Source: Diphasiastrum complanatum (lineage: Eukaryota; Streptophyta; Lycopodiopsida; Lycopodiales; Lycopodiaceae). From it: 64,000 nt of DNA. Both the position numbers and the translations under genes were made by a program. Location: contig CM055108.1 in NCBI GenBank assembly GCA_029204225.1, positions 18,013,779-18,077,778 of the forward strand, in the 5' to 3' direction. The notes beneath the pieces were generated by a model. The model saw nothing but the letters and a program-made list of their open reading frames with translations. It ran no database searches and was not told where the DNA came from. Shown piece after piece: positions 6,663 to 58,300 of this stretch. Within the stretch, counting starts at the first letter, position 1; the number at the start of each line of letters is the position of its first letter.

Positions 6663-7177
6663 CTATATCATCTTAGCATTACATAAATAAGATTTGATAG
6701 TACCTACACCCTGCCGAATATGCATCCATGTACATCATAGATACCCATTCCGAAACATTTGGTTCAAAACGTTCTGTCGTCCACGTTCGGACGCGGACGC
6801 GCCAGGGGTGCGTCCGCGTCCGATTTTTTGCAAAAAAAAAAAATTCAAAAAAAATTAAAAAAATACAGGCACCTGCCTACACTGTCCCCCATCCCAAAAG
6901 CAAAATAAAAGCAATTTATGGCCCCTGTTTTTCCCCCGGAATTAATTATCAGAGGGTGTCTAGCACCCACCTGCCCCCTCCCGTTAAAAAATAGGAAACC
7001 GGTACCAAAAAAATTTGCAACAAATCTAACCACCGGGCCATGCCTCTCATAACTGAGATATTACTAAACAACCATGGCTAATGAGCAGTTCATAAATTAT
7101 TACGAACCTTCATTGGGAACTAGGCTCCAAAAAAGCGGCAAAGAAAGATCTGAGAGTGGTTTCAAGTGAAGATGATG

Positions 7178-7215
7178 GTTTAGGGTTTAGGTATTAATGG
7201 TTTAGGGTTTAGGGT
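7178..7215 (+). repeat. Telomere-like TTTAGGG repeats
   Basis: Two clusters of plant-type telomere units (TTTAGGG followed by TTTAGG, then TTTAGGG twice) lie about 200 bases downstream of the hAT transposase stop, inside the element. A short repeated word (ctcaccagaagagtgacaagct and variants) follows at 7246-7353. Confidence 0.8.
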
Positions 7216-7388
7216 GCATCAGTGACTGTCTCAAAGAAGTGAATGCTCACCAGAGGATTGGGGAGAGGTGAACGCTCACCAGAAGAGTGACAAGCTCTCA
7301 GGAGCAAAAGTCTCTGGGGGAAATTAGGGCTCACCAGAAGAGTGACAAGCTATACACTATTGTGACTCCGTTGATGATATCGGTTTCT

Positions 7389-10300
7389 TCAGCGAGAGAT
7401 AATGGGGCGACTACCGGAGCTGCAGCTACGTGCCCTCACGGTCCTCGGACCTACTCCCCCTTGCCCGAGCTGGTGAGGGCAAGGAAACGAGCCATCATCT
7501 GAAAAGGGGCGTGAAGTGGGAGTACTGGGTGGGGCACGTGGACCATCCCCTGCTAGGTCGACCGTCTCGCCTGAATCATATGTGGGCTCATCATCAGAGG
7601 AGGGCAATGGAACGTCAGCAGGGAGGGTGGTGGTCTCATCGGCATCGGCATCATCCTCGGGATCACCCCGCAGAGCACGCCGAGCGGCATCGTCTGGATC
7701 AACCTCTGGCTCTGGCTCTGGCTCTGGGTCACGATCTGCCGCTGCAACCAGGCACTCATTGGGATTGACCTGCACAAGCCAGTCATTCGTGAGAATAGCC
7801 GAAGCAACTGTGAGGGCATTAAACTGAATGTCTTAAACCAATACGAAAGCAAAACAACAGAGCAACGAAATATACCTACAGCAGTAGGGCGTGTGCGCCT
7901 CCTGCCCTCATGCTCTGTGTGATGCGTCGAACCACGGTGTTGCAATACACCAGGTCATTGCATCGCTCCGTCGTCAGACGGTTCCGCCTGTTCGTGTGAA
8001 CAAGGCTGAATGCTGACCAGTTCCGCTCGCACACGCAAGCAGAACAGTCCTGCATTAATTGGCAACAACTCGAGTGAGTACCGACCTTGTAGAGAAAATG
8101 CGCAAACTGGTTGGATGAATGAGATCAGACAACATACCTGTGAAAGGACTCAGAGCGCGAGCGTCCTCAGGTCTGGCTGCCCGGCACCGTAGCTCTCCCA
8201 CCATGATACAGGCAAGAGCCTGTTCTCTCGAACACGTGCAAGGTCCTCGCCGAACAACCCCAGAGAGTGCCTGCAGTTGAGCAACGATATGCTTGAGTAC
8301 ACTTGAGCCACCGCAGGGAAATTGAACGAACGACACGGTACGATAGATCAAGAGTTTACCTGTAACGGAGCCTCTGCACCTCGAGCCTGCTGCGGAACCC
8401 AGTGTCGCTGCTGAGGAGGCGGATGTATGCGAACCAATCCGCACGTAGCTCTGCATCGTCGTACTGCCTCTCGCTCTGAAACAGCGGATGCAGTATGTGG
8501 GCCACACTATGAATGGGCCGGTGAAACTTATCCCATTGCCGCTGCCACAAGCGCCTGATAGGCTCCAACCTGTGGACCACGTGGAGGCAACAGTTACATA
8601 CCATCGTGTTGCGACAGCAAGATGAAACAGAGTGCGAAATGGAAATAAGGATGGTGAGACGGAAAAAGGTTATACCTGGCAGGGTCCAGCTCAAAACGCT
8701 GGAGAGACTCGCCTATGCGGTCCATGAACTCGTAAATGAGGCCCATCGTGCACCCCTCGTGATCAACGAGCCTCAGAACAGAGTAGATGGGGCGCATGAC
8801 GTCCATGAGCTGCTGCATATCCACCCAGAAAGGCTCCATGAATAAGATGTCGTGGAAGGCCAAGCCCTCTGGGGTCGTGGACAGGTCCATGGCAGTGAAC
8901 TCTGCCGAAGTGGCCATGTGCCGCAATTCACCCTTGAGCTTGTGTAGTCGCTCAAGCATGATGAATTGGTAGGCGAAGCGGGTGCGAGCGGGGGGCTTCA
9001 AGTCGAGCCTGCATTGACAAACGGAATGAGATGCACACATGAAACGAGCAAAAAATAAGGAAGCATCTTGAACGAGCCAAAAAATAAGTAGGAGCTTACC
9101 TGCTGAATGTGCGGAAAAGGGCCACCATGCGGCGCTTGCGTGTGACGAAGTCCACAACCGCAAGTGCCCTCGTGAGAATGTCACTGACCCAAGGCAGGCG
9201 CCCGATAGAATGCAGGAGGAGGTCCAGTGAGTGTGAGGCGAATGGAGTCCAGACAATGGAGGGGTAGTCTGCCATAAGAAGCCCCCCCATACCGCAGCAG
9301 TTGGACGCATTGTCCGTCACAACCTTTCGCGATACGTTCACACGATCAGTCCACAGCTCGGAAACACATTGCAATCAATCGAAAACTACGCAAAACTATT
9401 GTATCAACATCAAGCAACAAATGACCAAGCAACTAATGAAGGAAGATTATACTTGGACAATGCGTTGTGGTCCGACCTCCTCTATCGCTGCGTGAACGAT
9501 GCCGTAAATGTACTCGGCCGAATGCACTCTCCCTGCCTCGGAGGCGTCGATGTTGCGCAAGAACATGGAACCGTAACAACTGGAAACAATCACGTTGATG
9601 AGTGAACGTCTCCGACGATCAGTCCACCCATCAGCCATGATGGAACAGCCGTATCTATCCCAAGCCTCATGCAGTGCGGCCAGTCTCTCTCTGACTGATG
9701 CAACCCGGTCCTGGAGCAAAGGGCCTCGTAGTGCGTCAGCTGTGGGTGGTGTGTAGCCGGGCCCGCAGACTGCAACTTTTGAGATAGCCTCTCGAAAGAT
9801 GCGGGATGATGCCATGATAAAGGGGAGGTTCAGGTCATAGAACATCTGTGCTATGGTCCTGGTGGCCTCTCTGTGCTGCCTCTCTGAAAGATCCCGGCAT
9901 GAACATCTGTCTGGTGCCTCAGGATGTGGATAGCTGGGAGGATGCGGATGGACAATGCGGATCTGGAGGTGGTGGCATAGGTGCAGGTGCGAAAGCGGAG
10001 GATGTGGACGGGCCGTGCAAATCTGACGGTGATTGCAGAGGCATAGGTGCAGCAGTGGAGGCTGTGGATCCATGGGGAGTACTGGCGGAGGCAGAGGCGG
10101 AGGCGGTGGCGGGGGCGGGTGCGGATGCAGCGGCGGTGGCAGGTGCAGATGCGACGGTGGGGGCGATGGGTGTACCAGTGGTAGGGGCGGTGGCAGTGGG
10201 TGCATCTGTAGAAATAGAGTCCGCGGCATTTGTGGACGGCTCGCCGGGCTCAGCAGCTGACTCAGAATATGTCTCGATAATGCGAGCCCTCTCCGCAGCG

Positions 10301-10449
10301 GAGATGACCATACAAATGCCAATCCCGTAGCGTCCCCTCATGGGTCGGACTCGCAACCCCCCCAGATGTGCTCGAACCCGAGAGGCGTTCCCTGTGAACT
10401 GCCGTCGACAAAAAGGGCAACGCCACTTTTTGTCGGGCATCACCTCCAC
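7389..10449 (-). pseudogene. hAT transposase (BED finger, DUF659-type core, dimerisation domain), inactivated
   Basis: The exons read right to left. Exon 1 (10449 to about 9450) starts MEVMPDKKW and carries a BED-type zinc finger (WRCPFCRRQFTGNASRVRAHL). A long Pro/Ala/Ser linker follows, then the hAT core start (FREAISKVAVCGPGYTPP, SIMADGWTD); there is a frame change in the linker. Exon 9100 to about 9355 carries VVTDNASNCCGMG. Exons 8676-9008 and 8360-8569 cover the middle. Exon 8138-8270 carries PVSWWESYG. The exon starting at 8049 carries the dimerisation motif CERNWSAF. An acidic tail ends at 7389. At 8150-8152 a TGA stop sits where Arg would be expected before VLSQ. The copy is therefore dead as read. 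The role would be cut-and-paste transposition of this family in the nucleus. Confidence 0.88.
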
Positions 10450-10454
10450 CTCAT

Positions 10455-10458
<4 letters not shown>

Positions 10459-10521
<63 letters not shown>
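10459..10521 (+). repeat. (CT)n microsatellite
   Basis: About 30 CT dinucleotides without interruption, just upstream of the hAT transposase start and inside the element. Confidence 0.97.
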
Positions 10522-10523
<2 letters not shown>

Positions 10524-10856
10524 GCCCTCTTTCTGCTCTCGAGTTCTGCGACTGTCCGCAGGGCCCCCTTCTTTTGTTTTTTTTTTTTTTTCAAAAAGCG
10601 TCTGGGGCCCGGACGACTCCGCGTCCGGACGCTGGACGAGTCCAGCCCAAAAAAAAAAAAAATTTAAAAAAAGGACGCGTCCGACCCCGCATTCGGACGC
10701 GTCCGGGTCCGGGCGTCGGACGCGGGCACTTCGGCCTGGACCCTCATGTCTGATACAAACATCAAGAAAAATTAAATTCTTTTCTCCTTTGAGAAAATCT
10801 CATCCCAAAAGAAAAAATCTGAAATCATACTTCAAAAAAACAACTTTTGGGGTATT

Positions 10857-10975
10857 GAGCTATCTACATTTATAGAGTGCATTGTTCATGCGAGATTATT
10901 ACTCGAAATACGTTTTTATCTTGAAGTAAATCATAATGGCTCGTAAAAATCATGTAAAATCTTAGAATCGATCTA
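10857..10975. repeat. Direct repeat, right copy (partner at 6017-6130)
   Basis: Same orientation and similar length as 6017-6130. It begins about 100 bases beyond the right end of the hAT element. Confidence 0.75.
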
Positions 10976-11122
10976 CATCATGCATATCCAAGTTACATGT
11001 TGTCATTTCCTTCTTGTTATGAACAAATCCTTATCTAAAAGGACCCACAAGTTACTAGAAGGTCTTGAAAAACATAGAAATAGAGCTATTAAAATGATTG
11101 ATGACCAACAACATAATCATAT

Positions 11123-11734
11123 CAATGTTGCAGCAGATCGCAATCCGCTGCAAAATCATTGCAGAACGTGCACTCTGGAATGCCAGCGATCCGCAACCCG
11201 GATCGCAATGTTTTTGTGGAGAAAAGACTAATGGCCAGTTTTTTTTTTAAGTATTATAGAAGAACAATGTATTGATAGAGGCAAAAATAACATTGCATAG
11301 AGGCTAGAGCCATATTGATCCACTTAATTATAGATAGAGACATTGTTGGCACTGTATAATGTACTCGCATTTTGTTGAGCACGTTAAGTTGACTCATGTT
11401 TTTGTCACAAGCTCTATCTAAGATGGGTGATTATGCTTCATAATTGTTGTCGATTGGCTATCGTTCAATATGGATCCATGTGATTTCATTTCACATAATA
11501 AAGAAATGGAGATGTTCGATAAAGAATCACTTAATGGCACAAAATTGGACCGCACTCCTCTTGGAACTCCGAGCAAACTAGGTAAGTGAATTGCTCTTGA
11601 AAACACCTTTAATCTGATACCAATATTGGCACCCCAAAAAAGAATTGCATTTCCGGAAACCCTAATTATCGCGTTTCGGATCACATTCCGAAACGCATTC
11701 CAGATTGCGTTCTCAAACGGAACATGCAACATTG
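11123..11734. mobile_element. 612-bp nonautonomous hAT-type MITE with perfect 8-bp target duplication
   Basis: The terminal inverted repeat CAATGTTGCA starts at 11123, and its complement ends at 11734. The octamer aatcatat is duplicated exactly at 11115-11122 and 11735-11742. Subterminal palindrome-like words lie inside both ends: GATCGCAA/GATCCG at the left, and ATTCCGAAACGC/GCGTTTCGGAT at the right. No transposase is encoded. An open minus-strand frame at 11418-11864 overlaps the right part but looks fortuitous. An 8-bp duplication and a CA...TTGCA end fit the hAT superfamily. Confidence 0.9.
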
Positions 11735-12319
11735 AATCATATCTTAGCGTCCAACATAGGGCCCAATTGAGTTTATTGTAATTATGTCCAAACACATATT
11801 CAAAATTTGCACCATTCATGAACATTGAATCTATATTTGCTACAACATATTTATTCCAACACATTGAATATCTAATTATAGAAAATAAAAAGCGTGCATA
11901 TTATGGAATAAAAGCTATTGAATGTAATCAAAAGTAGCACATGTATGAATCATATAAGTATTTTTTATGTATACATGGACTTTTTGTCTAAATAATCTAT
12001 TTAAGGAAGCCCAATTTCATCCTAAACTTTTACTAATTGAAAAAAAAGATTTTTAAAAAAAGGAAAGGAAATGCATTTCAAATAAACAAGTTTGGTCACA
12101 ATCCGAAAGAACGTCCTCAAATCCACCCACCACCAAAGGGAGGCCAAGAAAGTGGTGATTTGGTAACTACATGGGCCATAGAGGAGAAACAAATTTCGCA
12201 TTGCATGTAGGAGGTTCTTTTATGCTAAAGAAATTCTTTTCAATTTAGTTCGAACTTGATATTTTCAACATATGTTGAGAACTACATCAGAGATGTTGTT
12301 GGACCCAAGGGGCTTGGGA

Positions 12320-13846
12320 TATACTGAAGACCTTGTATGAGACCCTACATCAGTCACGAATCTTGTTCTTGACTAATAAGCTACACACTGAAGATGGGTA
12401 CGGGTGAATCAGTAACGGACTACTTTACTCGAGTGAAAGATTTGAAAGGACAACTTATTGCAATTGGAGAAAGCGTTCCAGATTCAGTCTTAGTATCCAT
12501 TGTACTTAATAGTCTACCTTTGGCTTATCAAAACTTCGTAATGATGCTATCGTTACGAGAGACAAGGCCTTCTTTTGATGAGCTGAATGCCATATTACTA
12601 CAAGAAGAAATGAGACGACAAAATATTGTCCACATGCACGATTTCAAGGAACGGGCATTCCTAGCAAAGCAACAAGAGCGAAGTTCCACGAAGGGTGGCA
12701 AAGAGAAGAAGAAGAAGAAGAAGAAGAAGCAGCATGATACGAAGGAGAATCAATCAAATGTAAAGGAGCACGTGCTGGCACAACAAGTTCAAGAAAAAGC
12801 AAGATGGGAATTTTGTTGAAGAAGAAGAAGCATCAAATGCAAAATTGAGTGCTTTGGATCTTGAAGACTACGAGTTGTTTTCGGCATCAACATCTTCTAG
12901 TGGTGGCTTCTCGAAGGAGGAAGACTATTGGTTTATTAATTCAGGAGCTTCGAAGCATATGACACCTAGACGGGACTGGCTATCTAATTTTCAAAAATTA
13001 GATGATGGGTCAAATGTGAAGTTGGGAATAACTACACATATTATATGAAAGGAGTTGGAAAAGTACAGGTTCAACTACCTTCAAGGAAGATTGAAGACAT
13101 AAAGGACGTGCTTTAAGGAATCAAGAAAAACTTACTCTCAGTATCAGCTATTGCGAAGCAACTCATGGTGGTGTAGTTTTATGAACAGCGGTGACTCATC
13201 GAGAGAAAGGATAATGAAGTAGTAGCTGAGGGCATACTTGTAGGACTGTTGTACAAACTTCAGGCTCATGTGGTGGATCATCATGCAAGTGTTGCGGATA
13301 TTGGATCAGTGAGTAAGTTATGGCACGAAAGGTTCGGACATCTGAATTACAAAAGTCTACAAGTCTTGAGGAAATACAACATGGTTATAGGTTTGTTGTG
13401 TCTTAGGCAACCATCATATGAAGAAATTTTCGCCTAGTACATTTAGGGCGAGAAATGTTCTAGAACTTGCTCGTACAGATTTGTGTGGTCCTATAAGGAC
13501 TCGGTCTTATGGGGGAGCTAGTTACTTCATGGTGTTTGTGGATGACTATTCTAGGAAGACATGGCTACTCAAGAATAAGGGTGAAGCGTTCAAGTATTTC
13601 ACATGGTTTAAGACACAGGTGGAGAAAAAAACAGATACACAAATAAAGATACTCCGCTCGGACAAAGGGGGAGAGTATATTTCTATGGAATTTCAGGTGT
13701 TTTGCAAGGATCATGGTATAAAGAGACAATTTGAAAACACAGACACGAATCAACAAAGTGGAGTTGCAGAAAGAAAGAACCGGTCTATAGTGGAAACTGC
13801 GAGGAGTATGCTCAAGAGTAAGAATCTTCCAAATATGTTTTGACTA
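12320..13846 (+). pseudogene. Ty1/Copia gag-protease-integrase remnant, cut by LINE D
   Basis: Positions 12394-12819 encode a Copia Gag (GESVTDYFTRVKDLKGQL) ending in a lysine-rich stretch. The protease follows at 12910-13050, where the usual DSGAS catalytic motif reads NSGAS. A pre-integrase piece (KLWHERFGHLNYKSL) lies at 13310. Integrase core runs 13440-13843 with TDLCGP, MVFVDDYSRKTW, SDKGGEY and GVAERKNRS. The reading frame is broken near 12818, 13050 and 13440. It stops at 13846 where the LINE sequence begins, so the RT/RNase H half is absent. No LTR was identified to the left. Confidence 0.88.
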
Positions 13847-15270
13847 CCAATGGTTACAGCGTAAAACTATTATTCAGGAGGTAAGGACAAAACAACAGCG
13901 GGAGCATCCCGATAGCCCCGGCTAGTGTCACATTCGGTTTTTGGAACTGCGGCGTCCTCTCCACCTCTTCTACGACGGCTGATCTTGACACCTATCTATG
14001 TTCAGCTGATTTTCTACTTTTTGCAGAAACACATGAGTCTTCCACACGCCCACTTTCACACATTTCTGGTTTTCAATGGATTTCTGCTCCACAACCTATG
14101 CTACAAGGCAGGATACTTCAGGCCTCTGGTGGAGTTGCATGTTTGTACAGGTTGGTGTATACTCCTTCTATTCAGTGGTGTCTCAAGATACTTATGGCCG
14201 TTACTTGTGGCTTCAGATTACTGCATCCTTCTTGGGGCTGGACCAGGACTTGTGTTTGTTGCAGTGTGCTAGTTTTCTCCCCACACTTCAGTGTTTACGG
14301 ATTTGGGAGGTGATCCTTTTCAGGCCCTCTCTGACGGCGTTGCTAGACTCTCTCTACAAGTGTCAAGGTTACACATTGCTTGCAGGGGACTTTAACACAC
14401 ACACAGTTGCTCGCCAGATTAAGTTCTATGCTGGCACACTCTCTCTTCATCCGTTGGATACCTCTTATGCCTGTTATTCTCAGGACTCATCATCGACGGT
14501 TACGCTTTTTGAAGAACGGCTTCTGAGGTTGGCTCAAGCACACGGTCTCATTATCCTTAACGGTCTTCTTCAGTGGCCATCCTTCTCTGCATATAAATGT
14601 GCCACCCATTTGGTGGCGGTCACAACGTAGTGGACTATTTCATTGCATCTCCTGCTTTATTGCCCGCCTGGCATCCTTCACCATCTCTATCCCGGTGCTC
14701 ATTGATCACTCTTTGCTCTACCTCTCCTTCTCCCCAGCGCCAAGTCCGCCTTCTCCTCCACCTTCCCTCTTTGTTCGCCCCATCTGCTATCGTATACCTC
14801 CCCATCAATCCCAGGCCTATGTTGCCCACGTCTCTCATCTTCTGGACCACTTTCCTTCCTTGTGTCACCGCGGAAAAAGCCCAGATGTAGTCGCCACTTG
14901 CCTCCATCAGGGCCCACTGTACACTCCACTCAACGGACACTTCACACTTAATTTCGCTGATATGTACAGATTCTCCACCTGGCCCGGGCTGTGGGCACTG
15001 GTACTTTTCTGTAGTTCTTTTATTCGTAGGTAGTTTATAGCATTTTACGGCCACGTCCTCCTATGGATGATGCTCCCACTATTGCTTGTACATATTTTCT
15101 TTTTGGTCTTATGCACCCACGGGAGCCCAAAAGACGCTAATAAAGCTTTCTTTCTTTCTTCCTTCTCTGATGTCACTACCCAAGCCTCTCTTGACACACA
15201 CCCTGACTACCGCCGCTCATGCCATTGCACCCCCTCGTCGCTTCTCTTCTCATCGTCGTACCCGTAATAA
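13847..15270 (+). pseudogene. LINE fragment D (ORF1 end and endonuclease)
   Basis: The junction with Copia integrase is abrupt. From 13847 the sequence matches the ORF1 end of LINE B (tggttacagcgtaaaactat) and then the inter-ORF motif agccccggctag. The endonuclease follows across several frames: GDFNTHTV near 14390, QWPSFSAYKC and VVDYF near 14640, SFSPAPSP near 14740, then [21 protein letters not shown] at 15200-15260. It ends at about 15270 with no RT. An extra 300-base insert splits it at 14862-15165. Multiple frameshifts show it is inactive. Confidence 0.85.
14862..15165 (+). mobile_element. Short retroposon or 5'-truncated LINE end inserted in LINE D
   Basis: Comparison with LINE B shows about 300 extra bases between ctcatcttctggaccac and atgtcactacccaagcc. 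The insert ends gctaataaagctttctttctttc, matching the 3' terminus shared by the other LINE copies. Both junctions carry ttccttc-like sequence, consistent with a target duplication. No clear A or B box was seen, so a truncated LINE 3' end is favoured over a SINE. Confidence 0.65.
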
Positions 15271-16380
15271 TATAGGCTTGCTGCAGTTGATGCCGATGGT
15301 ATACCACTTTGGGCCTTATATGCACTAGAGGCTTTTCATGCTATTGATTCATTTTTACCTCTTGATATTTGGCATTCTTGGTTATTATGTATAGCTTGGA
15401 TTTCATTCGGACCTGTTGATTGGTGTTGGTTTTTCCATATTACTAATCATCCGCATCTCCTAATAGCTTGGGTTATTGCCTCCGTCCCAGCTACTATTTG
15501 TCAAGATGATCTTCAGGTTCCCTGGCATTTCTGGTTGCTCCATATCACTTGGTCTCCGATGCTATTATTGAGTTGCCACTTTTTTCTGGTGTTCCTAGAC
15601 CATCAAAGTACCTTGAGAGAGGTTCTTCTGCTTTCTTGGTTATTTTTTGGGGATGTTGCCGCCATGTACTTCAATGCTACTCACATATGCTTTGATACTC
15701 ATTACCAGCTACAGGCGGATATTGCTCCGACACTTGCTACTGATGATACGGATCCTATTCCTTGTTCTACTTTTCGTATATTAGTTGAGCTCGCTATTCC
15801 TCGTTCCAGTGCATTTCTTCTTTCAGTTATTTCAGTGGCTTCAGTTGCTACTTTTCCTTATGCTAGTTCCATGGTTGCGGTCTCGTTGCCCTTGGTATGT
15901 GGTTGCAGTTTTCATGTTCTTCTATTCCTCACTTGTGTGCCTAGTGTGTACTTTGGGATTGCACTTGTGGCTAGTTCCGATGGGTCATCTGATTCTCGAT
16001 CCGTTTTTGCTGCATCCTATGATGACTTGGTATGTCCATATGAGGTCCTTCTAGATGAGTATTTCAACTACAGTTTCTCCGTTGGGGCCTCTACTAATTC
16101 TAGATTTGTTGCCACTGCTTACAAGCATCATGTCTTTTTAGATGATGCGTTGCTTTCCTGGACCTTATGGATCTCTTGGCATGATGATCTTCTCACAATA
16201 CGTCCATTCTAGCTATCCTTTGTCAAGACGATGTCTTTATGCTTGATGTTTCCTGGCATATCACTTGGTCTTCCATGATATTGCAGCGTGACTCTTGTTC
16301 TGCCTATGTTCCTACTCCTTGGTGCTGGTCTATTGATGCTACTATCCTTTCTTGGGGCACCTATATCGTTGAGTTTGCAC
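15270..16380 (+). other. T-rich unassigned segment between LINE D and Gypsy integrase
   Basis: A 226-codon frame at 15535-16212 is very rich in Leu, Phe, Val, Cys and His. It has no domain that I know. The word cacttggtct is repeated at 15549 and 16263 with similar context. It probably belongs to the adjacent decayed Gypsy element, but I cannot name it. Confidence 0.35.
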
Positions 16381-17345
16381 TTATGGTTGACGGTTCCGTT
16401 TGCGATTGGAATCAACATATGTGTTTTGCAGATTACAGTTATAACAATTTGGCCAGTACCAGCACAGGTGTGTCTCCATTTTTGCTGGCTAATGGATATT
16501 CTTTGCTGCTACCAGGTATTCCACAACCTCCTAATGATGCTCATGTTACTTTATCTTCTTTTCTTACTAACTCTCGTGATTCTATTGTGCAGGCACAACA
16601 ACGTTTGGCAATAGCTCAACATCGTTATAAGTCCTTGACTGATTGTCATAGGTCCTTTTTAGAGTTTGTTGAGGGCCAGTCTGTTTATGTTCGTTTATCT
16701 TTTGCACGTCATAAGTTTGTACAGGGTCGTTCTCTTATTGACAACTTATCTGCACATTACTATGGTCCCTTTCAGATTGTGGACAAACTAAGGCCTGTTA
16801 CCATTTACAATTACCTACTACTACTCGTGCTTGTGACATTTTTCATGTTAGTCTTTTTGTTTGTCTCTTTTTCCTGGTGAACCTTGTGATACTTTCTTTC
16901 CTACTCTTCAACTTCTTCCATTTTTACCCACTGCTATTTTATAGGTTCGGGACAATTTACGTTGTTATCGTCATCTTGTCCAGTTTTTGGTCCAATGGGA
17001 CGGTAGTCCAATTGATGAAGTTACATGGGAGTCTTTCGATGTTTTTGCCCACTCACCTTTATTGCAGGAACAGGCTCGCTCTCTTCATGCCTTATTACAT
17101 GACACTATGGCTTCTGCACCTGATGATGCACCACTTTATGCGCTGTTGTTGCAGTTGCTAATCCACATCTTGCTGATGTTCCTGACGCTATTGATGCAGT
17201 TCCTAATTCACATGTTGTTGTACCACCTACTGATTTGCCTAATATTGATGGCTCCGATGCTTTGCTGCTCCAGCTATTGATTCTCCATCATTTGTTGATG
17301 ATGATACCTCAGTTGCCCGACGACCGCCGTTGCTTACATATTGAT
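16380..17345 (+). pseudogene. Ty3/Gypsy integrase C-terminus with chromodomain-like tail
   Basis: Positions 16400-16800 read as the end of Gypsy integrase: NNLASTSTGVSPFLLANGY, then SIVQAQQRLAIAQHRYKSL, then SVYVRLSFARHKF and LSAHYYGPFQIVDKL. After a frameshift near 16800, IFHVSLF and a chromodomain-like segment (QFLVQWDGSPIDEVTWESF, 16975-17040) follow. The frame decays after 17150. The order and spacing are those of a plant Gypsy pol 3' end. The 3' LTR starts about 200 bases downstream. Confidence 0.85.
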
Positions 17346-17557
17346 CTAGCCTTAGCAACTACCGTTGAGATAAAAATCTCTTAGCTTCATTGTACTATAA
17401 GCGTTTTCCGCGGCTGTAGGGGATTCGGCTATTGGACTGACACCACTAGCACGAAATGTATAACCCAGGAAAGAAAACGGCAATACAACGGTACTAAAGT
17501 AGCTCTAGTAGTTAAGATATTTTTTAGCCCACATTGAGGGCAATGTTTTAGATGGAG

Positions 17558-17900
17558 TGTTATGGACATACATTATAGTCCATCCTCCTCTATTTTTGAC
17601 AATATTTTTGGACACGCAGTTATATTACATGTGACAGGCCTAGAAACACCATTTACATGGTTTTCTAATTTTGGCCCTAATTTTTTAATTTCACCTTCCC
17701 TCCATTTCTATATGAAGGGAGGTAGGTTTTGTCCACTATAAATAGCCACTAAGGCTGGTCATTTAGTAGCTTTGATCATTTTGAGTCTTGGGCTTCTTGT
17801 AGGGGAATTGTATTATTTTGGAGATCTTAGTTGGAGATCTGCCTGAGCTATCGACAACCATTGATATTCATATAGTTTCTTAGTTGGAGAATGCTTTTTG
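17558..17900 (+). repeat. Probable Gypsy 3' LTR
   Basis: A TGTTATGGAC start at 17558 follows a typical plant Gypsy pre-LTR phrase (cccacattgagggcaatg). A TATAAATA box lies at 17737-17744 in a promoter-like context. The 3' boundary is uncertain, and no matching 5' LTR is in the window. Confidence 0.6.
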
Positions 17901-18258
17901 TTGTCTTTTATGCATCATTTATATCAAAATCTATGACTTTGTTCATAGCACTAAGTTGAATGTAAGTCTCAACATGCCAAATATGAGCTATGTTTATCTG
18001 AACTAGTATAAAAATCAATTCACCAAGAAGAATGAGGCTCACATGCCTATTTATAATCACTATGGTTCTCACCTTGATCTACTCAGGATTTCAAGTCTAT
18101 GTCCTAATTTGGGGGCCTAATAAAAGCTCTTTAATTTATAAATGTCTTGAGAAATGTAAATAATGATTGATGGGTCCAAAAATTTCAACTTAGTGAAATA
18201 AATGCTAGGCCCATGATTCAAAAATATTTTTAACATCTATATTTTTTTTAACTCATAC

Positions 18259-18815
18259 CATAGTTGCACTGTGTTTCTAGAAACGCGTTCAGAAACGCGT
18301 TTCTGGATTTTGGTAGCGTTTCTCAAAAATGTGTTTTTTTTTTTTAATTCTTTTGTGAACAATATGGGTATCAGATGAAAGCTCTAATTAAGGGCATTAC
18401 ATCTGTATAGGTTGCCGAATGTTTCGGGTACAGGATGGTCCAGTTCAGGTGCATTAACTCCTAGATTTACGTTTTAGCTCCTTCAATATAAAAAATTATA
18501 AAAAAAATTAGAATGTCCCACTACCTACCCTTCATGATCCCTCTTGCCCAGTCCTAATTTGTTCCCATTGCTAAAAGGCCAATTATTTGCCCTCTAGAAG
18601 CTTTATTGAGGATCGTTCACAATACGACTTTTTTTTTGCGTTCTCCCTATTTTATTTCATTGCCTTGAAGGCTTGAACTTAGCAAACATGGCCCCCCATT
18701 GTAATTATGTTTCTTTTTAAACACGTTTCTATACCAGAAACGCATAGAAACGAGTTTCTGAGAAACGCGGTTTCAGAAACAAGTTTGCCCAGAAACGCGA
18801 CTCTGTGCAACTATG
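18259..18815. mobile_element. 557-bp hAT-type MITE with AGAAACGCGTTTCT subterminal palindromes
   Basis: The terminal inverted repeat CATAGTTGCAC starts at 18259 and its complement ends at 18815. The heptamer ctcatac is duplicated exactly at 18252-18258 and 18816-18822. Both ends carry repeated GAAACGCG/CGCGTTTC words (18278-18325 and 18720-18800), with a poly-T run next to the left cluster. No coding sequence was seen inside. Confidence 0.9.
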
Positions 18816-19135
18816 CTCATACATCTACAAAGTTATTCATTTTCATTGCCCTTTAATCACAATTTCACACATACAAACAAAGTGTACATTTTCATTGCCC
18901 TTTATTCATTTATAAATTGATTCATGATAGACTTTGAAAATCTGCTTATTCTCTAAGAGAACTAGTCCATGCTTGAATTTTCATATAACCAACCAATTTG
19001 TAGGAATGTTAAAAGCATTACGCGAAGGTAACCAAACAGCTTGCTTCGAAAATTAGTTTTTTCTCTACCCGATCCAAATGCCAAGCTAAAAGTAAAGATA
19101 AAACTGTCGTAAAGATGTGGTGTGTGTATCCTTAC

Positions 19136-19209
19136 CAGAGGCGATGTTGTTTTACGCCTCAAAATGTCAGTTTCACAATCACCTCCAAGTGTTCCGATGG
19201 CATCTTGTG
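19136..19209 (-). CDS. RTEL1: RTEL1 C-terminal tail exon
   Basis: Acceptor tgtttgcag precedes CACAAG, and donor CCTCTG precedes GTAAGG. It is 74 bases, two completing a codon plus 24 codons ([16 protein letters not shown]). It fits the one-base overhang of exon 21736-21863. The sequence is in the poorly conserved tail, so assignment rests on strand, splice sites and phase. Confidence 0.7.
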
Positions 19210-22200
19210 CTGCAAACAATGTATTTAAGGGCATTCAACTATCATCTATTGAATGAATCCTCGACCAAAGATGATAAGGGTTTGAATACATGTGAAGTAT
19301 ATAAATATAAATTTTAGTCTGGATTTCATCACTATGTACACAAAACAAAAGAAAAATTTAAACAAACCATGCATTGGTTATGCAAGGTTGTTCAAGAGTA
19401 CAAAACTGAGGTGCAATTATCATTTTAATATCACAGTTCTGATTTTAATGACTTTGCTACAAATAAATTCCAAATCAGTGAAGTAATACATTGCTTATGT
19501 GGCCAACAAATCAGAAATTTCTTCCACTTCAAAGACAAGTTATTGTGTTAGTTAAAAGCCAAAATTATCATTATCACTCACCTTGATTAAATTTTTTGAT
19601 CTTGATCTACTTGGCTTCAAGGGTGATCATGACACCAAGACTTGACGGACACGTCTTGAAGCCAAACTTCTTGTTGATCAAACTTTCATTGAAACTTAGA
19701 AGCCCATTCCAACCATTTTGGGTCGGAATGTTCCGTTCCGAACGTTCCTGGAGTTCCGGAGCGTTCCTGGTCGGAACGATTTTTTTTTTAATAAAAAAAA
19801 AGGGTAAAAACCCTGCTGGCCCCCGCATTAGCCATTTCAGAAGTTCGCGAGCAGGGAAAGTGTGCCTACAGTCATTTTCGGGATGAGCTGAGTGGTGGAT
19901 GTTCTGTGTTTTTTTTTTTTTCATCATTGTTTGGGTATGTCAGTGTGATCAGCTGCAGGATTGTGTGGTGATATTAGTTTTGTTTTTTAGATCCCATTTC
20001 GTAACTTTTTTCAACATCTTTTTTTCTTAAGTTTTCTAATTTGATGGGCATAGAATGGGCTGTATGCATCAGATTAGGATACTTGTTTGTGCGTTTAGTT
20101 TCTTTTAATATGTATACAAGTGTCTGAACCCGTTCGTTGTTTCTTTTCTCAAGTTCTTGTAGTTTTTTGGGAATCCCACTACGTAGGCTACAGTTAGGGT
20201 TAATTTTGTGTATTTTTTTAGGATTTCGGAAAATCTGCAGGGTTCAGTGTTTGTTGTTTGGTGTTTGGTGTTTGTTGTTTTGTGGTTTGTTTTTCGAGTT
20301 TAGTGGTCAAGTTGCTTGTGGTCGTCTAGATTTAGAGTTTGCGGTTTTCTTTTTGGGATTTTTTTAGTTTCTGGTTTAGGGTTCATCATGCATAGGCCGT
20401 CATATTGGGATGAGGTGCAGCTTTTACAGGATGACGATGGTAGGTATGGGGGGACTGGTGCTAAGCGCTGGAAATGTCCGTTCTGCCAGTCTGATTACTC
20501 CAGCACACTCACCAGAGCCAGGGGTACTGGCAGATCTAGCAGTAGGCCCAACCTAGCCAATCTGTATGTGCGGTTTGATCAGGAGCCAGGAGCATGTGCC
20601 CCCAGTACCGCCCCACCAATACCTAGGGGTAGGGGTAGGGGCAGACCTCGAGGGTCAGGCGTTGGATCTAGCCAGGGCATGAGCCAGTCTGCTAGAGCTA
20701 GAGGCAGAGGCAGAGGCAGATCTGGGCGGCTCATGGCCCCCTCACCAGACATTATAGAGAGTCCCATCTTAGCCTCAGATGACGTCTCACCATAGGATTT
20801 ATTTTCATAGTACTATGTTATCAGACATGACGTGTTTCTTTTTGTATCGGATGTACGGCGAACGCATAACTATTTTATGGATGTTTTTTGCTTACATTTA
20901 TGGCTCTTCCCTAAACCCTGCTCGAATTATATGATGGTTATTCTCCTGCAGTTCCGTTACGTTTCATCAAGAATGTTTCTTGGTTTCAAAATAATTTCAT
21001 GGTTTTGTTGATGAATGTATGGTAGCAGGTCAGATCGTATTCTAAATGCAAAATTTAGCCGAGCACCGTAGGTTGTTTATATTGACATGAATTCTCAGGT
21101 TATTTTTACTCCATTCAACACTCCTAGTTAATAGTCTGATTATTGTAATTAATTGTCTGTTCATTAGTAAATCTGTTTAATGTAGTTAATTTTCTGTTTC
21201 TAAGTTAATTAGCTGAATTTTTATATAAATTAATTCCTTTGTAAAAAAACGTATTTTCTTTTTCTGGGGCATCGTTCCAGAACGTTCCAGAACGGGCAAC
21301 TAAGCATCGAATAAAAACTATGGCCGGGATAATATACGGATAGACAAGAGTGTACGCAATTGCAAATGCTCAAAATGAGGACTCGACTCCGTATTAATGG
21401 GACCAACTTCTCCCAAACTACAAAATTGTAAAATTTCACCACATCAAACACTCAAAAGGTTCACGTACCAAACACTAAACACATGACTTTTCAAAAAGAT
21501 GAAAAAGGTTGTAGATCACTTTTTGAAGGCTTGAGCAAATTCAGGATATAGCATCACTATAATAAAAAGCTAGAGCATATTAAAGCAAAGAGCAATGATA
21601 ATCGAGAAAACCAGTATACCAAATATAATATCAAAACAATGTTAATAAAAATTGCATCCTTATCACAACATATTTCTTTCAATATATTGTCTAAGATCTA
21701 GGTTGATAAGTGGCAAATGTTAAAAACAGACTTACAAGCAATGGACTTTAAAGAATTGGACTTGCCAGGTGAAATGTCATATGAAAATAATGCTGCTTTC
21801 GTGTCTGAAAGTTGGATATTTGACACCTTTACAGCCTCTGCAATGAGCTTCAAGTTAATATTCCTATGATAAGCATACACTAACATGAAAATTTAGCATT
21901 CATTTGAGTATGGCCAATCAGAATCAAAGTTGAAAACTTAGCTTTTCTTACATTTACGAAAACATTTAGCAACAATTTGCACATGTTCAAGGACCAATAT
22001 TTAAAATGGTAAAAAGCTTCTAGTATAAAGATAAAAACCATAAAGTGCCCTTATAGACCTTGGTATTCTTCTTCCAAGCAATGTGTTTAAAACAACCACT
22101 ACAAAACTTAAAAACTCCAAAAATAGGCTCTTTGAAAACTCAAAATGATTTCAAGAAATCACCTTTCTAAGTTAAATGATTTTTTTCCAAACACACTTAA

Positions 22201-43200: not shown

Positions 43201-46200
43201 AAAGCCTGAAGTCTGTAAGTGTTAGTTTTGGGTCTTGCCTCCAGCACTGATGAATGTACACTTGATTCTGCAAATTAGAAAGACTGTGCCATCAATCATC
43301 CTCCTATCAACTTGGCAACACATTATGCAGATTATTTGATAATATCGGTGAATCAATCACAAAGAAGCATCTTTGAAAATTGCCAAAAATAGCAAAGTGA
43401 CAGCTTTTGAGTTATGCACATTTAGTTAGAAAATTGATTCATATTACTCAAATCTCCGTAATTTCATCCATTGTTGGTATCTAATAAAGCCTTGAAAGAA
43501 CCAGACTATGCCAAGTCAGACACAAATAAGCACTTTAACCCATTCACCATATCTTTGCAACAGATTTTGCAGTGCTAAAAATTAAAGTGGCAAATGCTGC
43601 AGCCCTGAAGGGTTGTGTCGTGGAAAACACAGCACTAAAGATTGAAAATCGGAGTATATAAGCAGACAACACCTTGGATGAAGATCCAATCCAGCCTCTA
43701 TTGTATACAAAATGTAGGTGTGACCATTGTGTCATCCTATGGCACTTACGCCTTGCATCGTGTATATGCCATCTGAAGCAAAAAAAAAAATTATGTTGAC
43801 TAAAAAACATTGGCCCTTCGCTAGAAAATTGGCACCTTCCTACTTCATACCAAAGATTGGTCCACTTAAAACCATCTCCAAGTATGTCCATGAAGAGACC
43901 ACCTCTAATGATTGGCCTGCCAATGTAAAAGTCTGTCCTCTCACAAAAGATCATGATATATTGAAGACCAAACCACCACTATGACAAATGACTGCCTCCA
44001 TCTGGTCAATATGTCATCCAAAGAGCATAGAAGAAAGTGTACATCATTGTTTGAGCCCAATGGTGCTGAGGATCATCTATAAGGTACCCTCATGTGTCTT
44101 GGAATATCTCAGTGCGCTCTCATCTAGAGCCATAACTGCAAGTATGTAGCCTAATAGAAGTCTAAGATCTCAAGCTCTGGATAAGCACATCCTCTCATAG
44201 AAAATCAAAAGCTTGGCAAAAAGTCTACAAAGCAACAATAGACCTTCTCTCATTTGTACCTCTCCTCTTCTATGACTGCCCTTTGTGTGAAGATATGATG
44301 CATGGTAGAATAGGCTGCTTGAGAAACAGCCTGACCTCTAGCATGCAATTGTCAACTTCCTTGGTCAATGTTGACTCGAGGATATTCACATGCACCTTGG
44401 CGATAAGATGGCCAAAAATGATGATGCAGTAGTTTTCTGAATACATTCACATAAGCAACTTGTTTAGACAATTATGTATAGCCAACCCATTGTCACTATC
44501 CAATGTGACCTTCTGTATACTTTATTCCACACTGTCCAAGGCACAGGGGTGTAGAGTTATGGACTCATAGTGCATTTAGGGTTTATTTGACACTAGGAGT
44601 TGAGGAGCCAATAATTTGATTCACAAGATGCACACATTCTTATTCACAAGCTATTTGGGGCCATCTGGAGGGACACACTATTTTCGAGGGAATTGTTTGA
44701 GACATATCTCATTACTCAAACCAATCCAATCATATAAGCTTCTTTGAATAAAGAAGACACAATTTTTGCTCTCTTTTTTTTTTTCTTCATCATTCTTTAT
44801 TTCCTTTTTGTTCTTTCCTTCATAGTTCTTTTTGTTTACCTTGTCTCTTTATATTTCTTGATTTTCTTCCTTTCTTGTTTTCTTCTAAAAGAAAGCTCTT
44901 GTCCTGGATTACCATTAGGAAGGAGAAGTCCTCCTTTGAAAGATAGAGGGGGCGGCCCTACCTCACCTTAAGGGCATGTCTTGCCCTTAAGGGGGCAACT
45001 TGCCCCACACCAACCTGCGTAGAAGTTGCCTATGCAGGTGAGCCTACATAGGCAACAAGGCAACTGGTGACCCACATCATAGGCAACCTTGTTGCCTACA
45101 CAGTAGGCAAGCAGTTTTGCTACCTATAGAACGCCTAGCCTGCACACGCATATCCTATGGACTGCCCTGCAGCCTGTGGGCTGCCAAGTGGTCCTTACTA
45201 CTGCAAGGAAGTACACAAGGACCCTCCCTTTTGGCACATTCAAGAACTAGGGCCCTCCCTTGAGAAGGATGAAGGGGCCAAGGTCCTCCTTGGTTCACAT
45301 GGAAGGCCCATGGCCCTACGTGACTCAAGCAAAGGGTCTAGGGCGGCACCACAACCATTAGTTAGGAACAACTGCTACCTTTTCTTAAACTGAATTGCAA
45401 GTTTCATTTTGGCTACCATCAAATCCATATCAACCAAGAGATGAGCATCAAATCGCTTTATGCACTTCTTTTCGACTCTGAAAGCCAAATGTAATATCCT
45501 GTGCAAGGATGTGCGTCCAGGCCGGACGCGGGCAATCCACGTCCACGTCCGACCCCCGGACGCGTCCTCGGGCGCGTCCATTTTTTTTTTTTTTAATTTT
45601 TAACTCTAAAAAAATCAAAAAGAATTTTAAAGAAAAAAAAGCGGACGCGTCCGGGGACCCGGACGCAACCCTGGTGCGTCCGTGTCCGCGTCCGGGGTCC
45701 GCCACATTAGATCCTGTGTTACCAATGGCCCTCCCACTTTCCAGAATGCCATGAGCAATATTCTGAAACCTCTCATTGGCATTTGTGTTCTGATCCATTT
45801 TGATGCTATACTTGTGTTCAATACTTGTCAAACCAAAATAGTGGATATTCGAAGATCCTTAAGTAGCCCCCTTTTAGGATGGCCCAAAATGCAAGCAAAA
45901 ACTCTAAATTGCACCTATTCTTGCTCTTTCAACCAAAGCAAAGGCTTAAAACTAGAGTTTCAATATCTAAACTTACAAATATTCAATCAAAAAGCCACAA
46001 AAGGATTTCTCAACACTATTGTAAGAAAATCAGAACAAAATTTGTTATTGTTACATTTAACTAGTAAAGAGTGCCCGTCGATGACGGGCAATGGCGGCCG
46101 ATCTAGGTGACGGCCGATGATCTAGTGTGTGACATTAGGCTGATGATCTAGTGTGTGACATTAGTGTGTGACATTAGAGAGAGAGAGAGACCATGCGGTT

Positions 46201-48436: not shown

Positions 48437-49793
48437 ATCCGAGCAAGACCGTGAGAATCGTGAGTGAGAGAGAGAAAGAGGGACTTCAAAATCCAAAACG
48501 GGGCACTGCAGATAAGAGGGATTTAGAGAGAAAATTGGCTTGTTGCTCAACTGATGCCGTGAAAGGGAAGTGAGTAAGTAGTTGGGACAGGGTTGTGGTG
48601 TAGTTGGCGAGTCCAAAGTGAGTAAAAGGAACACGTTTGTTAGTAGAAGAGGAGCGTGGAACTTTAGAAGACGGGGTTATGTGACCCAGTGAGAGGCGTA
48701 GGAGTGAGTGATCAGAAATGGTAGGAGGTGTAATGGAGAAATCAGAGATGTGAGGGATCAAAGCAGGTGATCCAATAAAGTAGTCAACTACACTATGCCC
48801 TCCACCATGAGGATAACATGTAAACGCTGATGAGGAAGGCCACTGTGTGAGGCCATTCAAGATAGCCAGAGAATGTGTCTCCGCAAGAGTTATCAACTGC
48901 TCTCCAAAAGATGTAACTGAAGTGTGTGCATCCTGTGATACTCGATCAAATCCCATATCCAGAGGATGAAGCCGAAGAACGTCAGTATCTGCATGAAATT
49001 CTGTCTGTCTGGAGCTAGTACGGGCGTTGAAATCTCCTGCTAACAAAATGTAACCCTGCTGAGAAAAAACAGCAATATCATCAGAGAGTGCCTGAAATGG
49101 GTCCCCACCAAATTCAGCAAACACCGAAGTCTGTGGAGCAAAGTAACATACAGCCATATAAATGTCCTGCAATAATCCCAATAATGAACCAATAGTATGT
49201 AGCCATATATATCGAGCATACGGATCTTGCTTAACCATCTTAACTTCCGTGACTCTGTATAAACAAGCTACTCCGCCAGATCCACGACAGGTTTTTCCCC
49301 TCACAAATGGGCGAAAAACAGAATGCCAAGAGTAATCCTGTATATGTGGAAGAGGATGATATAAGGACTCATGGGGTTCAGCCAACAACAAAATGTCACA
49401 TTTGCTTATAAAATCAGCAAAATCTCCTGCCGATGATGATGATAAAAAATCATTGCAATTCCAGAAGCCAACTCCTAAACCCGGGAGCCCCAAGTTCCTA
49501 GTGTGAGAGGAGGTCAAAATATCTTGGTTTGCCGTCGATAAAAACGACTCTTTGCCCTTTTAAAGTGGTAGAGGGTGCGGCACCCGGACTTCCCAGGAGG
49601 TCACCCATCCCAGTACTATTCAGGCCCAAGCACGCTTAACTTCGGAGTTCTGATGGGATCCGATGTAGTAGTGCTGGTATGACCGCACCACAAATGTTGA
49701 TATTGAAATAGGCGCGGACGGCAGGATTCGAACCTGCGCGGGCAAAGCCCATTTGATTTCGAGTCAAACCCGTCAACCACTCCGGCACGTCCG

Positions 49794-55600: not shown

Positions 55601-58300
55601 TAAAGGCTCAACCATCTATTATACGGCACCACCCATCGGTTGTCCAAATCTTCACCCTTGCTTCTAACGACAACGCCATTGTTTCTTCTTCTATACAAAG
55701 CATAACCATTGACAATGGCAGTCTCCTGAACAAACTGTCTAGGATAGATTTTGGAGCAACGCCCATCCTTCATACACGGGGCATTTGGATAACGTGATCC
55801 ACATGGTCCATGCATCATGCAAGTTTTCACTGTCTCGTACAATTGAGGATCAGTTTCCCTATCGGGAATTTCAGCGCAAACGATATTGTCAAAATCTCTC
55901 CTAGTTATGGGTTTGCTAGCATGTTCGAGTATTATCAAAATATGTGCATGTGGCAGTCCCCTCTTTTGGAACTCCACAACATGCAATCTTCCTACTATGG
56001 CTCCAAATATTCCATCATCTTTCAAAAGATTGATCATACGTTGCAACTTCATATGAAACACTCGGGAAACTAAGTCGGGCCAATCAGCGGGTGTTTGCTG
56101 AAACTTCAACTCCCTTTTCACTTCTTGCCAATTTGGATTGGCAGTCATTGTGATGAACAGATCAGGACTACCCATCACTCTCACAACAGCCATCGCATCT
56201 TGGTATAGTTGGTTCATGTGGCGTGGAGATCCAATATAAGAAGAAGGCAACACCACACGTTGACCCACCTCATTTGCAACACGGTCACCAACAGCGTCAA
56301 CCAACCCGCTACGAATCTCCCTACGAAATTTTTGCTGATTCGTGGAAATGTAAACCAAACGGTTTTGCACCAATTTTGCAAGTTCATCGCACATATAATC
56401 TTGCAATAACCTTCCGCCCAAATGTATGGGCGACATATGTCCATCTCTAACCTGTAAGTGATAGCTATAGAATTCGCGAATCGTGACTGTTTTATGCCTC
56501 CCCTCACGTTCCTCATCCAAACCGTCCACACCTTCATCCTCTACGTCCATCCCCACATCCCGAGTTGCACTACACCCACTACCTACGTGGGGTATTCCAA
56601 GATTCCAACCATCAGTCCCGTAAGGAAACATGAGCACGAAATGTAACGGGTCATATGAGGAATGGAGCTGACTGATTCATTGCAAGCCACCATGCAAAGA
56701 ATGAACGACAATGTCGCGTAATCTATCTGTAGGGTTGCCATCCAACGGCAGCAAAACTGCTATCTCGTTTGTTGTTGGGGCACTGAACTAACTTTCCCTT
56801 TCATGCAACAGAAAGAGCTATTTGTCTCCGCTTTCCATCACAGAGCCAAACAACGGGCACATGCAAACTCCATCGATCCTACCTCATGGCATGTAGGCGT
56901 ACGATCAGACGATGCAACTCGATATAACTTCGACCTTTTGTCTCTTAAAGAAGCACTGACAACTCTAGGCTCAACAACCTCAGCTGTAAATTGCAAAGCC
57001 CTAGCTTTTCGCTTTGTTGTCGACCTACGAATCATCCTCCTTCTCCTTTCAGTTCGAGATTGCACTTCTAGAAATTGATATGAAGGATTAGTACGGACAT
57101 GTTTCGGGGTGACTAATTGTACGACGTCGTCTCGAAATATAGTAGACCGAGAAAGACTCCCACTCGTCCATTGTTTATTACGTGCCATTCTGCTATTTCT
57201 CTCCTCTTCTATCTCTACCCCAGGCGACCTATAAGATGGGTGACTCCGCACATCATCAATAACTGTAAACTCCATTGATGGACTCCTACACTCTGATGGC
57301 AATTCACTACTTCCTAAACGGTTGACGGCGAGAAGATGAGGCAATCGCACAATGACATCTAATGCCAATGGATCTTCACTATGCAGAGTCACACATGTTT
57401 CGCTACTCCTGATATGCTCTATTGCACCACTTCTTAGTGGTCCTACATTGATGTCTGAACTTAATACAGCATCTCCGTGCAAGGATCGGGACACATATGC
57501 ACTTTGTACACTACATACTGACAAAGCCCTAGCCTTGGCTTGTCTCCTACGGGCCAATCTCTTCTTCCTAGCAAATCTACTTTCATTTTCCGGAGTTTTG
57601 TATGAAACGTTGTTTCGCACACACTCCGGGGTTCTTGCCTGTTGGTCAGACTTTCCAGACATGTTGATCAGACTGTCTTGTTGTTTGAATAATTTTTTTA
57701 CAGCTGTGAAAACAATGTAACATCAATTGGAGATGGAGGGCTTCATTATCCAACAACATTCATAAATCATGCTCTTCTCATTGAGAAATGCAAAGAAAAG
57801 AAATATTTGTCCCTGCGGTCTGGACTCTCTGTCTTTGAGCCTTTCAAGCCATCACCACAATGGAGAGAGAGATCCTACTCAGGATAATATGCAGAAGTAC
57901 AAAGCCTGCAACATCAATTGCAAATTGAAGGCTTCACTATCCAACAACATTCATCAATCATGGTGTTCTCATTGAGCAATGGCAAAAAAAGAAAATACTT
58001 ACAGCTGTGGTCTCCACTCCCCGTGTTTGAGCTTTCAAATAATCAGCACAATGGAGAGAGAGATCCAATCTGTCAGACAAATATCCAAAACCTGCTCAGC
58101 GCGAGCAGAGAGAGCGAGCAAAGAGCGTTGGAGAGCAGAGAGCAAGAGAGCAAGGTAAATCAGAGCGAACAGAGAGCGAGAGAGCCGCAAATCAGCGCAA
58201 GCAAAGAGCGTTGGATAGACGGAGGGAGCGCGGGAGGGGCAGCTGGAAAATATTAGGAAGGGAGAGCGCGGGCAGGGGGTGGCCAGGCTGGCTAGCCAGC

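What the first reader, a model, noticed from the sequence alone, without database searches (positions are those of the whole stretch)
6771..21304. hAT-type family with shared termini but a private palindrome code in each element
Four elements in the left third, plus the miniature at 45504-45710, have hAT-like ends (CATAGTTGCAC, CAATGTTGCA, CTTAGTTGCCC, CAAGGATGTGC, CAGACATGAGG). Three show exact 7-8 bp target duplications. Each carries a different repeated subterminal palindrome next to an A/T tract: GGACGCGTCC, GAAACGCGTTTC, GGAACGTTCC, ATTCCGAAACGC. The encoded proteins have a BED finger. Inference: the palindromes are transposase binding sites that change quickly with the BED finger, so each lineage has its own recognition code.
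Basis: partly seen in the sequence, partly recalled or inferred. Interest (0 to 1): 0.8.

Follow-up and report, generated by a model that had tools for sequence, protein, structure and literature searches.

The report
hAT transposons with lineage-specific end codes
These are cut-and-paste transposons of the known hAT group whose ends carry repeated short DNA words; different transposase lineages in this genome sit beside different words, which gives a natural test set for how their DNA-binding finger reads DNA.

Summary
The five elements are real. Three have exact target duplications (E2 8 bp, E3 7 bp, E5 8 bp); E1 and E4 match at 6 of 8. The code is not private to each element: E1 and E5 are one family with one word (GGACG), and E2's code is weak. 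Searching the window's own 1.74-Gb genome gave seven transposase lineages with BED-like fingers and six words in their 5' ends: GGACG, GGAACG, GAACCG, GTACCG, CAAACG (two close lineages), CGAACC. By k-mer profile, 28 of 28 chosen ends are nearest to an end of their own lineage. E4 looks like a deletion derivative of the GGAACG lineage. Genome-wide, two GGACGCGTCC words 2-32 bp apart occur 574 times (control 1); GGACGCGTCC near GGAACGTTCC occurs 0 times (the pure GGAACGTTCC count was not obtained). Word distance follows finger distance (Mantel r 0.58-0.60, p about 0.01), but so does the rest of the finger, and the helix result loses significance when lineage E or F is dropped; covariation is not separated from descent. 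Best reading: lineage-specific transposase binding sites. The principle is in print for other hATs (PMC8097297). Binding was not tested.

The parts
6766..10752 (-). E1: DUF659-type hAT element, lineage A; left end uncertain (6765-6771), right end CAGACATGAGGGTCC at 10752
   Evidence: DUF659 and sub-threshold Dimer_Tnp_hAT matches; same right end in 10 of 12 genomic relatives in which a finger was recognised
6778..6821 (.). E1 left array, 5 GGACG half-sites, then an A tract
10611..10722 (.). E1 right array, 9 GGACG half-sites (two GGACGCGTCC) with an A tract inside
10300..10590 (-). E1 reading frame with the BED-like finger WRCPFCRRQFTGNASRVRAH
   Evidence: zf-BED 15.3-18.8 bits, cut-off 20.6
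9450..9848 (-). E1 DUF659 exon, first part
   Evidence: PF04937 E 3.5e-26
9099..9374 (-). E1 DUF659, second part (VTDNASN by eye)
   Evidence: PF04937 E 1.6e-13
7879..8124 (-). E1 C-terminal hAT-like stretch (CERNWSAF by eye)
   Evidence: PF05699 E 0.0061, 16.8 bits, below cut-off 21.4
11123..11734 (.). E2: non-coding miniature; inverted pairs GCGATCCG/CGGATCGC (left) and GCGTTTCGGA/TCCGAAACGC (right), by eye
   Evidence: exact AATCATAT duplication; weak end-to-end similarity
18259..18815 (.). E3: miniature with GAAACG arrays at both ends
   Evidence: exact 7-bp CTCATAC; arrays; genomic copies with 8-bp duplications
19695..21304 (+). E4: apparent deletion derivative of lineage B with a finger remnant (20304-20792)
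   Evidence: same left TIR and array 5' of DUF659 genes in L073, L082, L089
19726..19778 (.). E4 left array, 4 GGAACG half-sites, then a T/A tract
21273..21294 (.). E4 right array, 2 GGAACG half-sites
45504..45710 (.). E5: miniature of the E1 lineage, 12 GGACG half-sites around an A/T core
   Evidence: exact ATCCTGTG; 1240 first-look candidates in the genome
61361..61436 (.). E7: further array, 4 GGAACG and 1 GAAACG, next to an A tract; element ends not found

Best explanation
The elements are hAT transposons of the DUF659 type with their deletion derivatives and miniatures. Behind a short terminal repeat each end holds an array of short inverted half-sites and, in most ends seen, an A/T tract. 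The half-sites are most likely the landing sites of the transposase's N-terminal BED-like finger: several fingers of a multimer sit on paired half-sites and so find the right ends. The word belongs to the transposase lineage, not to the single element. The words share an ACG, ACCG or CGAACC core holding a CpG and differ in outer bases and spacing. Shown: anatomy, target duplications, one dominant word per sampled lineage beside that lineage's finger, constancy of the word in the copies sampled, no A/B mixture genome-wide. Inferred: that the finger binds the word, that the A/T tract helps as in Hermes, and that variable helix residues read the outer bases.
For: Words against shuffles, same word at both ends of E1, E3, E4, E5. 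DUF659 and BED-like matches. Blind scan without TIRs found the lineage word as top cluster upstream of 14 of 22 fingers among 26 DUF659 loci. 28 of 28 nearest-neighbour assignments. Nearly diagonal word table. 30 of 30 E5-type copies with 4-15 GGACG and none of two other words. In E3 copies the arrays change in length while the word stays. 574 pure GGACGCGTCC pairs against control 1, and 0 A/B mixtures. Hermes BED domains bind a quasi-palindrome and need an adjacent AT-rich stretch (PMC10368747, passages); Ac transposase binds subterminal AAACGG (PMC3260210, passages); four hAT proteins have their measured motif in their own subterminal regions (PMC8097297, passages).
Against: No binding data. 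8 of 22 fingers had no clear word cluster in 2.9 kb. Half-site positions in 21 E5 relatives are not significantly better kept than other end positions (0.867 against 0.827, p 0.16). The helix does not beat the rest of the finger as a predictor. E2 has no clear shared word. In Hermes one end binds no BED domain (PMC10368747), so arrays need not all be occupied. The pure B count is missing.
Confidence: 0.75

Rival explanations
1. Descent only: each family inherited and amplified its own end repeats by slippage and gene conversion; finger and word differ together because both follow the family tree, and the words have no role in specificity.
For: Rest-of-finger distance predicts the word as well as the helix (r 0.52-0.58); the helix test is not significant without E or F. 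Half-sites in E5 relatives are not significantly better kept.
Against: The same word is kept at both ends and in miniatures that share little else; arrays in E3 turn over while the word stays. Ac repeats are needed for transposition (PMC3260210, passages).
Confidence: 0.15
2. The arrays are sites for host factors or DNA methylation (CpG-rich palindromes) and not for the transposase.
For: Each word holds a CpG; CpG transitions exceed CpG transversions in E3 (20 against 3), D (9 against 0.75) and E5 (31 against 16.75) copies.
Against: A host factor would not explain a different word beside each finger lineage. No such excess in A, C or G.
Confidence: 0.07
3. The inverted repeats act as hairpins or foldback structure and not as words.
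For: Arrays are rich in inverted repeats, for example arms 45561-45599 and 45623-45661.
Against: Half-sites also stand alone or in direct order at varying spacing, so the constant is the word and not a fold; hAT elements move as duplex DNA (recalled).
Confidence: 0.03

Closest known systems
CGGBP-type hAT proteins (Yellan et al. 2021, PMC8097297; passages)
   Same: hAT BED fingers with diverse words, usually holding CGG or CGC; four hAT proteins have their motif in their own subterminal region.
   Different: Measured binding of mainly animal and fungal proteins; here the pairs are inferred from sequence, in DUF659-type elements of one genome.
Hermes (PMC10368747; passages)
   Same: BED domain on paired AAGT/AAGC half-sites with an AT-rich neighbour; the paper notes a perfect palindrome behind the TIR of Tol2.
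   Different: Hermes word has no CpG and only two palindromic pairs; here arrays of CpG words; no complex was tested.
Ac/Ds of maize (PMC3260210; passages)
   Same: Several subterminal AAACGG repeats bound cooperatively by the transposase; 8-bp duplications; deleted and miniature partners.
   Different: In the passages seen the repeats are not described as palindromic arrays; here the transposase has DUF659 and several words coexist.

Membership tests
hAT superfamily | 8-bp target site duplications | tested here: met
   E2 and E5 exact 8 bp; E3 7 bp, but 6 of 13 delimited E3 copies have exact 8 bp and 5 one mismatch. E1 and E4 6 of 8. Only 4 of 22 delimited E5-type copies have 8 bp with at most one mismatch.
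hAT superfamily | Short terminal inverted repeats | tested here: met
   E2 10 of 11, E3 11 of 11; E5 and E1 terminal repeats are poor.
hAT superfamily | Transposase with hAT dimerisation region and catalytic residues | tested here: inconclusive
   E1: PF05699 E 0.0061, below cut-off; DUF659 well above cut-off; catalytic-like motifs by eye only.
BED zinc finger | Pfam zf-BED above the curated cut-off | tested here: inconclusive
   Of 6 lineage peptides scanned, only G passes (28.9 bits, cut-off 20.6); A 18.8, C 14.1, D 14.6 below; E and F no zf-BED match. W, V, C, C, H, L, C invariant in 9 aligned fingers.
Subterminal transposase sites as in Ac and Hermes | Clustered words inside both ends of one element | tested here: met
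   E1, E3, E4, E5; E2 not. 3' ends of autonomous relatives were not fetched.
Subterminal transposase sites as in Ac and Hermes | Binding by the transposase finger | not testable with these tools
   No binding data; structure prediction switched off.
Finger-to-word recognition code | Contact helix predicts the word better than the rest of the finger | tested here: inconclusive
   Helix r 0.58-0.60 (p 0.008-0.012), rest r 0.52-0.58 (p 0.006-0.016), seven lineages.

The most novel reading that the evidence does not exclude
One genome holds at least seven hAT lineages with finger and end word matched, and the words diverge because a new word frees an autonomous element from its own swarm of miniatures: each split is an escape from parasitism, after which new miniatures take up the new word. 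The CpG in each word adds a common methylation lock on binding. Lineages C and D (GGAACCGTGG against GGTACCGCGG, helices VSTLTRLKGH against AASLTRLKGH) would be a switch caught with the copies of the word changed together.
Probability: 0.22. Interest if true: 0.8.

Novelty: new member of a known kind. Interest (0 to 1): 0.55.

Why it matters
To my knowledge (recalled) BED fingers have no worked-out recognition rule. Here one genome supplies matched pairs of finger and word, each word repeated several times per end and in many copies. That makes the rule testable with a handful of constructs and would let miniatures be assigned, from their end word alone, to the transposase that moves them.

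Tried and rejected
Rejected: codes private to each element. E2 as a clean code. 63017-63582 as a hAT: its flanks and ends form one inverted repeat of copia-like sequence (by eye). Conservation of half-site positions in E5 relatives: not significant. PDB profile search with the finger alignment: mostly C2H2 fingers among the 60 of 123 matches shown, no BED domain named. Relatives of the E1 DUF659 second exon in viral and prokaryote collections: none confirmed. Ends for E7: no convincing pair.

Not reached because the server stayed busy: genome counts for pure GGAACGTTCC, pure AAACGCGTTT and GGACGCGTCC next to AAACGCGTTT; the E4 DNA search; PF05699. The 0 for A next to B therefore has no pure B count beside it. 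Autonomous partners of E2 and E3 were not found. 3' ends of autonomous relatives were not obtained. In one search two lineage C ends (L072, L083) were wrongly placed; one search replaces it.

Rows dropped. Lineage A: 7 ends used of 30 fetched loci; a finger was recognised in 12 of 30 and the known end in 10 of these; L053, L054 and L061 were left out as near-copies of L052; L048 and L049 had no end in reach. C: L086, L087, L091 without cluster. E: L090. F: L066; L069 has the F word but no finger. G: L001, L004, L005 not used; L004 has a GAAACG cluster upstream. L076, L080, L084 unassigned. L089 was put in B by TIR and word with no finger seen, so 27 of 28 ends have a finger in view; the L073 finger is decayed, and the lineage B helix used is a composite found in no single copy. 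The ends were located with lineage-specific TIR patterns chosen after seeing them, which is circular in part. One search counts near-duplicate loci, most loci were fetched because of these families, and its scan looks only at 6-mers holding CG.

Full report
What was checked. I read the sequence, scanned the window for pairs of terminal repeat and target duplication, printed the ends and tested end words against shuffles. The five elements of the finding are there. Exact duplications flank E2 (AATCATAT), E3 (CTCATAC, 7 bp) and E5 (ATCCTGTG); E4 and E1 match at 6 of 8. GGACG (E1, E5), GAAACG (E3) and GGAACG (E4) are reached in at most 1 of 1000 shuffles of the same end, and in these four elements both ends carry the same word. 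E2 is weak: 2 GAAACG at the right end, none at the left, and its right end is nearer to E3 than to its own left end.

Family, not element. E1 and E5 share the word (cosine 0.67-0.77 at k=5, 0.55-0.68 at k=6), and the E1 left end is nearest to the E5 right end and the reverse. Among 30 loci from the E5 search (one is E5 itself, some are near-duplicates), 22 could be delimited; L017, L019, L031 and L035 pair the E1 right end CAGACATGAGGGTCC with an E5-type end CTAASGTGGCGGACC. So E5 is a miniature of the E1 lineage. A sixth array at 61361-61436 has the E4 word.

Coding content. E1 has on the minus strand a BED-like finger, DUF659 over two exons and a sub-threshold hAT dimerisation match. E4 keeps a reading frame with a finger remnant in which Thr stands at the position of the zinc His (aligned by eye). 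Its left TIR and array recur 5' of DUF659 matches in L073, L082 and L089, so E4 looks like a deletion derivative of that lineage.

Genome. The window lies in a 1.74-Gb assembly of 5176 contigs. I infer a plant from TTTAGGG-like runs and repeat content; no tool named it. First-look candidates were 1240 for E5, 3346 for E3, 9290 for the E1 DUF659 exon and 10621 for Pfam DUF659. These are loose counts; 40 or 150 were scored per search.

Finger and word. I took 2.9-kb stretches 5' of 26 of the 150 listed DUF659 places, two short stretches for lineage D and had the 5 loci of the zf-BED search and 30 of the E1 search. A scan for inverted repeated 6-mers, without TIRs, had the lineage word as top cluster in 14 of the 22 loci of the 26 in which I saw a finger (the 8 others: L066, L068, L076, L081, L086, L087, L090, L091). 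Seven lineages result, named by the ten residues ending in the zinc His: A TGNASRVRAH with GGACG; B SSTLTRVRAH (composite) with GGAACG; C VSTLTRLKGH with GAACCG(TGG); D AASLTRLKGH with GTACCG(CGG); E QGGPQRIVSH and F QGGLQRVVSH, both with CAAACG; G TSGPTKMKAH with CGAACC. Of 28 chosen ends (A7, B3, C5, D3, E6, F2, G2), 28 are nearest to an end of the same lineage; within-lineage median cosine 0.84 (n 54, minimum 0.43), between 0.08 (n 324). The largest between value, 0.74, is E with F; without that pair it is 0.44, C with G. The word table is nearly diagonal; overlaps are GAACCG (2.5 per end) and GGACG (1.0) in G.

Does the helix predict the word? Helix distance against word distance gives Mantel r 0.58-0.60 (p 0.008-0.012); the rest of the finger gives 0.52-0.58 (p 0.006-0.016). 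Without F the helix p is 0.14-0.17, without E 0.08-0.15. With seven lineages this cannot be told from descent. Hermes contacts bases with Q64, S66, N67, R70 and main-chain atoms of R63 and T65, just before H71 (PMC10368747, passages). Counted back from the His by hand, these fall on the stretch that varies here. Arg four before the His is the majority residue in six of seven lineages (Lys in G); some copies depart (L052, L070). No structure could be predicted.

Constancy. The 30 E5-type loci carry 4-15 GGACG and no GGAACG or GAAACG, but they were picked by similarity to E5. Of 14 E3 copies fetched (of 40 scored), 13 had both ends found: 6 exact 8-bp duplications, 5 with one mismatch, 2 without; L096/L101 and L103/L104 look like duplicates. 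Their arrays vary, and L103 and L104 keep only one GAAACG. Other words are rare in the ends: GGACG 0, GGAACG 2, CAAACG 3; AACCG 6, inside GAAACCG-like variants. Conservation along E3 is 0.68-0.82 at positions 476-550 against 0.88-0.98 at 101-425, so sites turn over while the word stays. Against this, half-site positions in 21 E5 relatives are not significantly better kept than other end positions (0.867 against 0.827, p 0.16).

Exclusion. In 363,652 held bases a scan for CG-holding inverted 6-mers found 101 clusters, 0 in one Markov resample. 98 have a known word and 93 of these are at least 80% pure; of the five mixed, four mix CAAACG with GAAACG and one (L080) GAACCG with GGACG. Genome-wide, two GGACGCGTCC 2-32 bp apart occur 574 times (control 1); GGACGCGTCC with GGAACGTTCC 0 times on either strand, control 0. 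The pure GGAACGTTCC count could not be obtained, so the zero is suggestive only.

CpG. The words found each hold a CpG. CpG transitions against transversions: E3 20 and 3, D 9 and 0.75, E5 31 and 16.75, E 3 and 0.5, B 1 and 0.25, but A 1.5 and 3, C 1.5 and 2.75, G 0 and 0.5. This fits methylation of some copies and leaves room for a methylation switch, which was not tested.

What it works like and what it is. By duplications, ends and transposase these are hAT elements. They work like Ac and Hermes in having words behind the TIR; binding here is inference. That hAT BED fingers have diverse words, and that four match their own subterminal regions, is in print (PMC8097297, passages). I saw no paper on end words of DUF659-type hATs in the listings (open-access library only; most listed papers not opened). 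The elements are new families of a known kind; the side-by-side set of finger and word pairs in one genome is the useful part.

Noticed in passing
window 53233-56676: Helitron-like genes on the minus strand: Helitron_like_N (E 2.8e-54) and PIF1 helicase (E 1.3e-23).
   Followed up: no
window 48489-49559: Minus-strand frame with an endonuclease of the kind found in LINE retrotransposons (Exo_endo_phos E 7.7e-11).
   Followed up: no
window 63017-63582: Inverted pair of copia-like fragments that mimics a TIR with a TTTGCAAA duplication (by eye similar to 13707-13790).
   Followed up: partly
window 7188-7212: Short run of GGTTTAGGGTTTAGGG, telomere-like, inside E1 (by eye).
   Followed up: no
L045, L059, L060, L062, L077, L106, L107: Lineage A and D ends start directly after (AT)n runs, as if they insert into AT microsatellites.
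   Followed up: no
L001 and L005 upstream of the BED exon; L004: Dense direct repeats of TTAGAA/AGTTAG, not palindromic and without CpG.
   Followed up: no
L021 230-570: Three tandem clusters with another word, CCGAAC/ATCCGA.
   Followed up: no
L072-L088 (C) and L077, L106, L107 (D): C and D ends start alike (CATAGAACCCACGG and CATAGGTCCCGCGG) and their half-sites differ in the same two bases across copies.
   Followed up: partly
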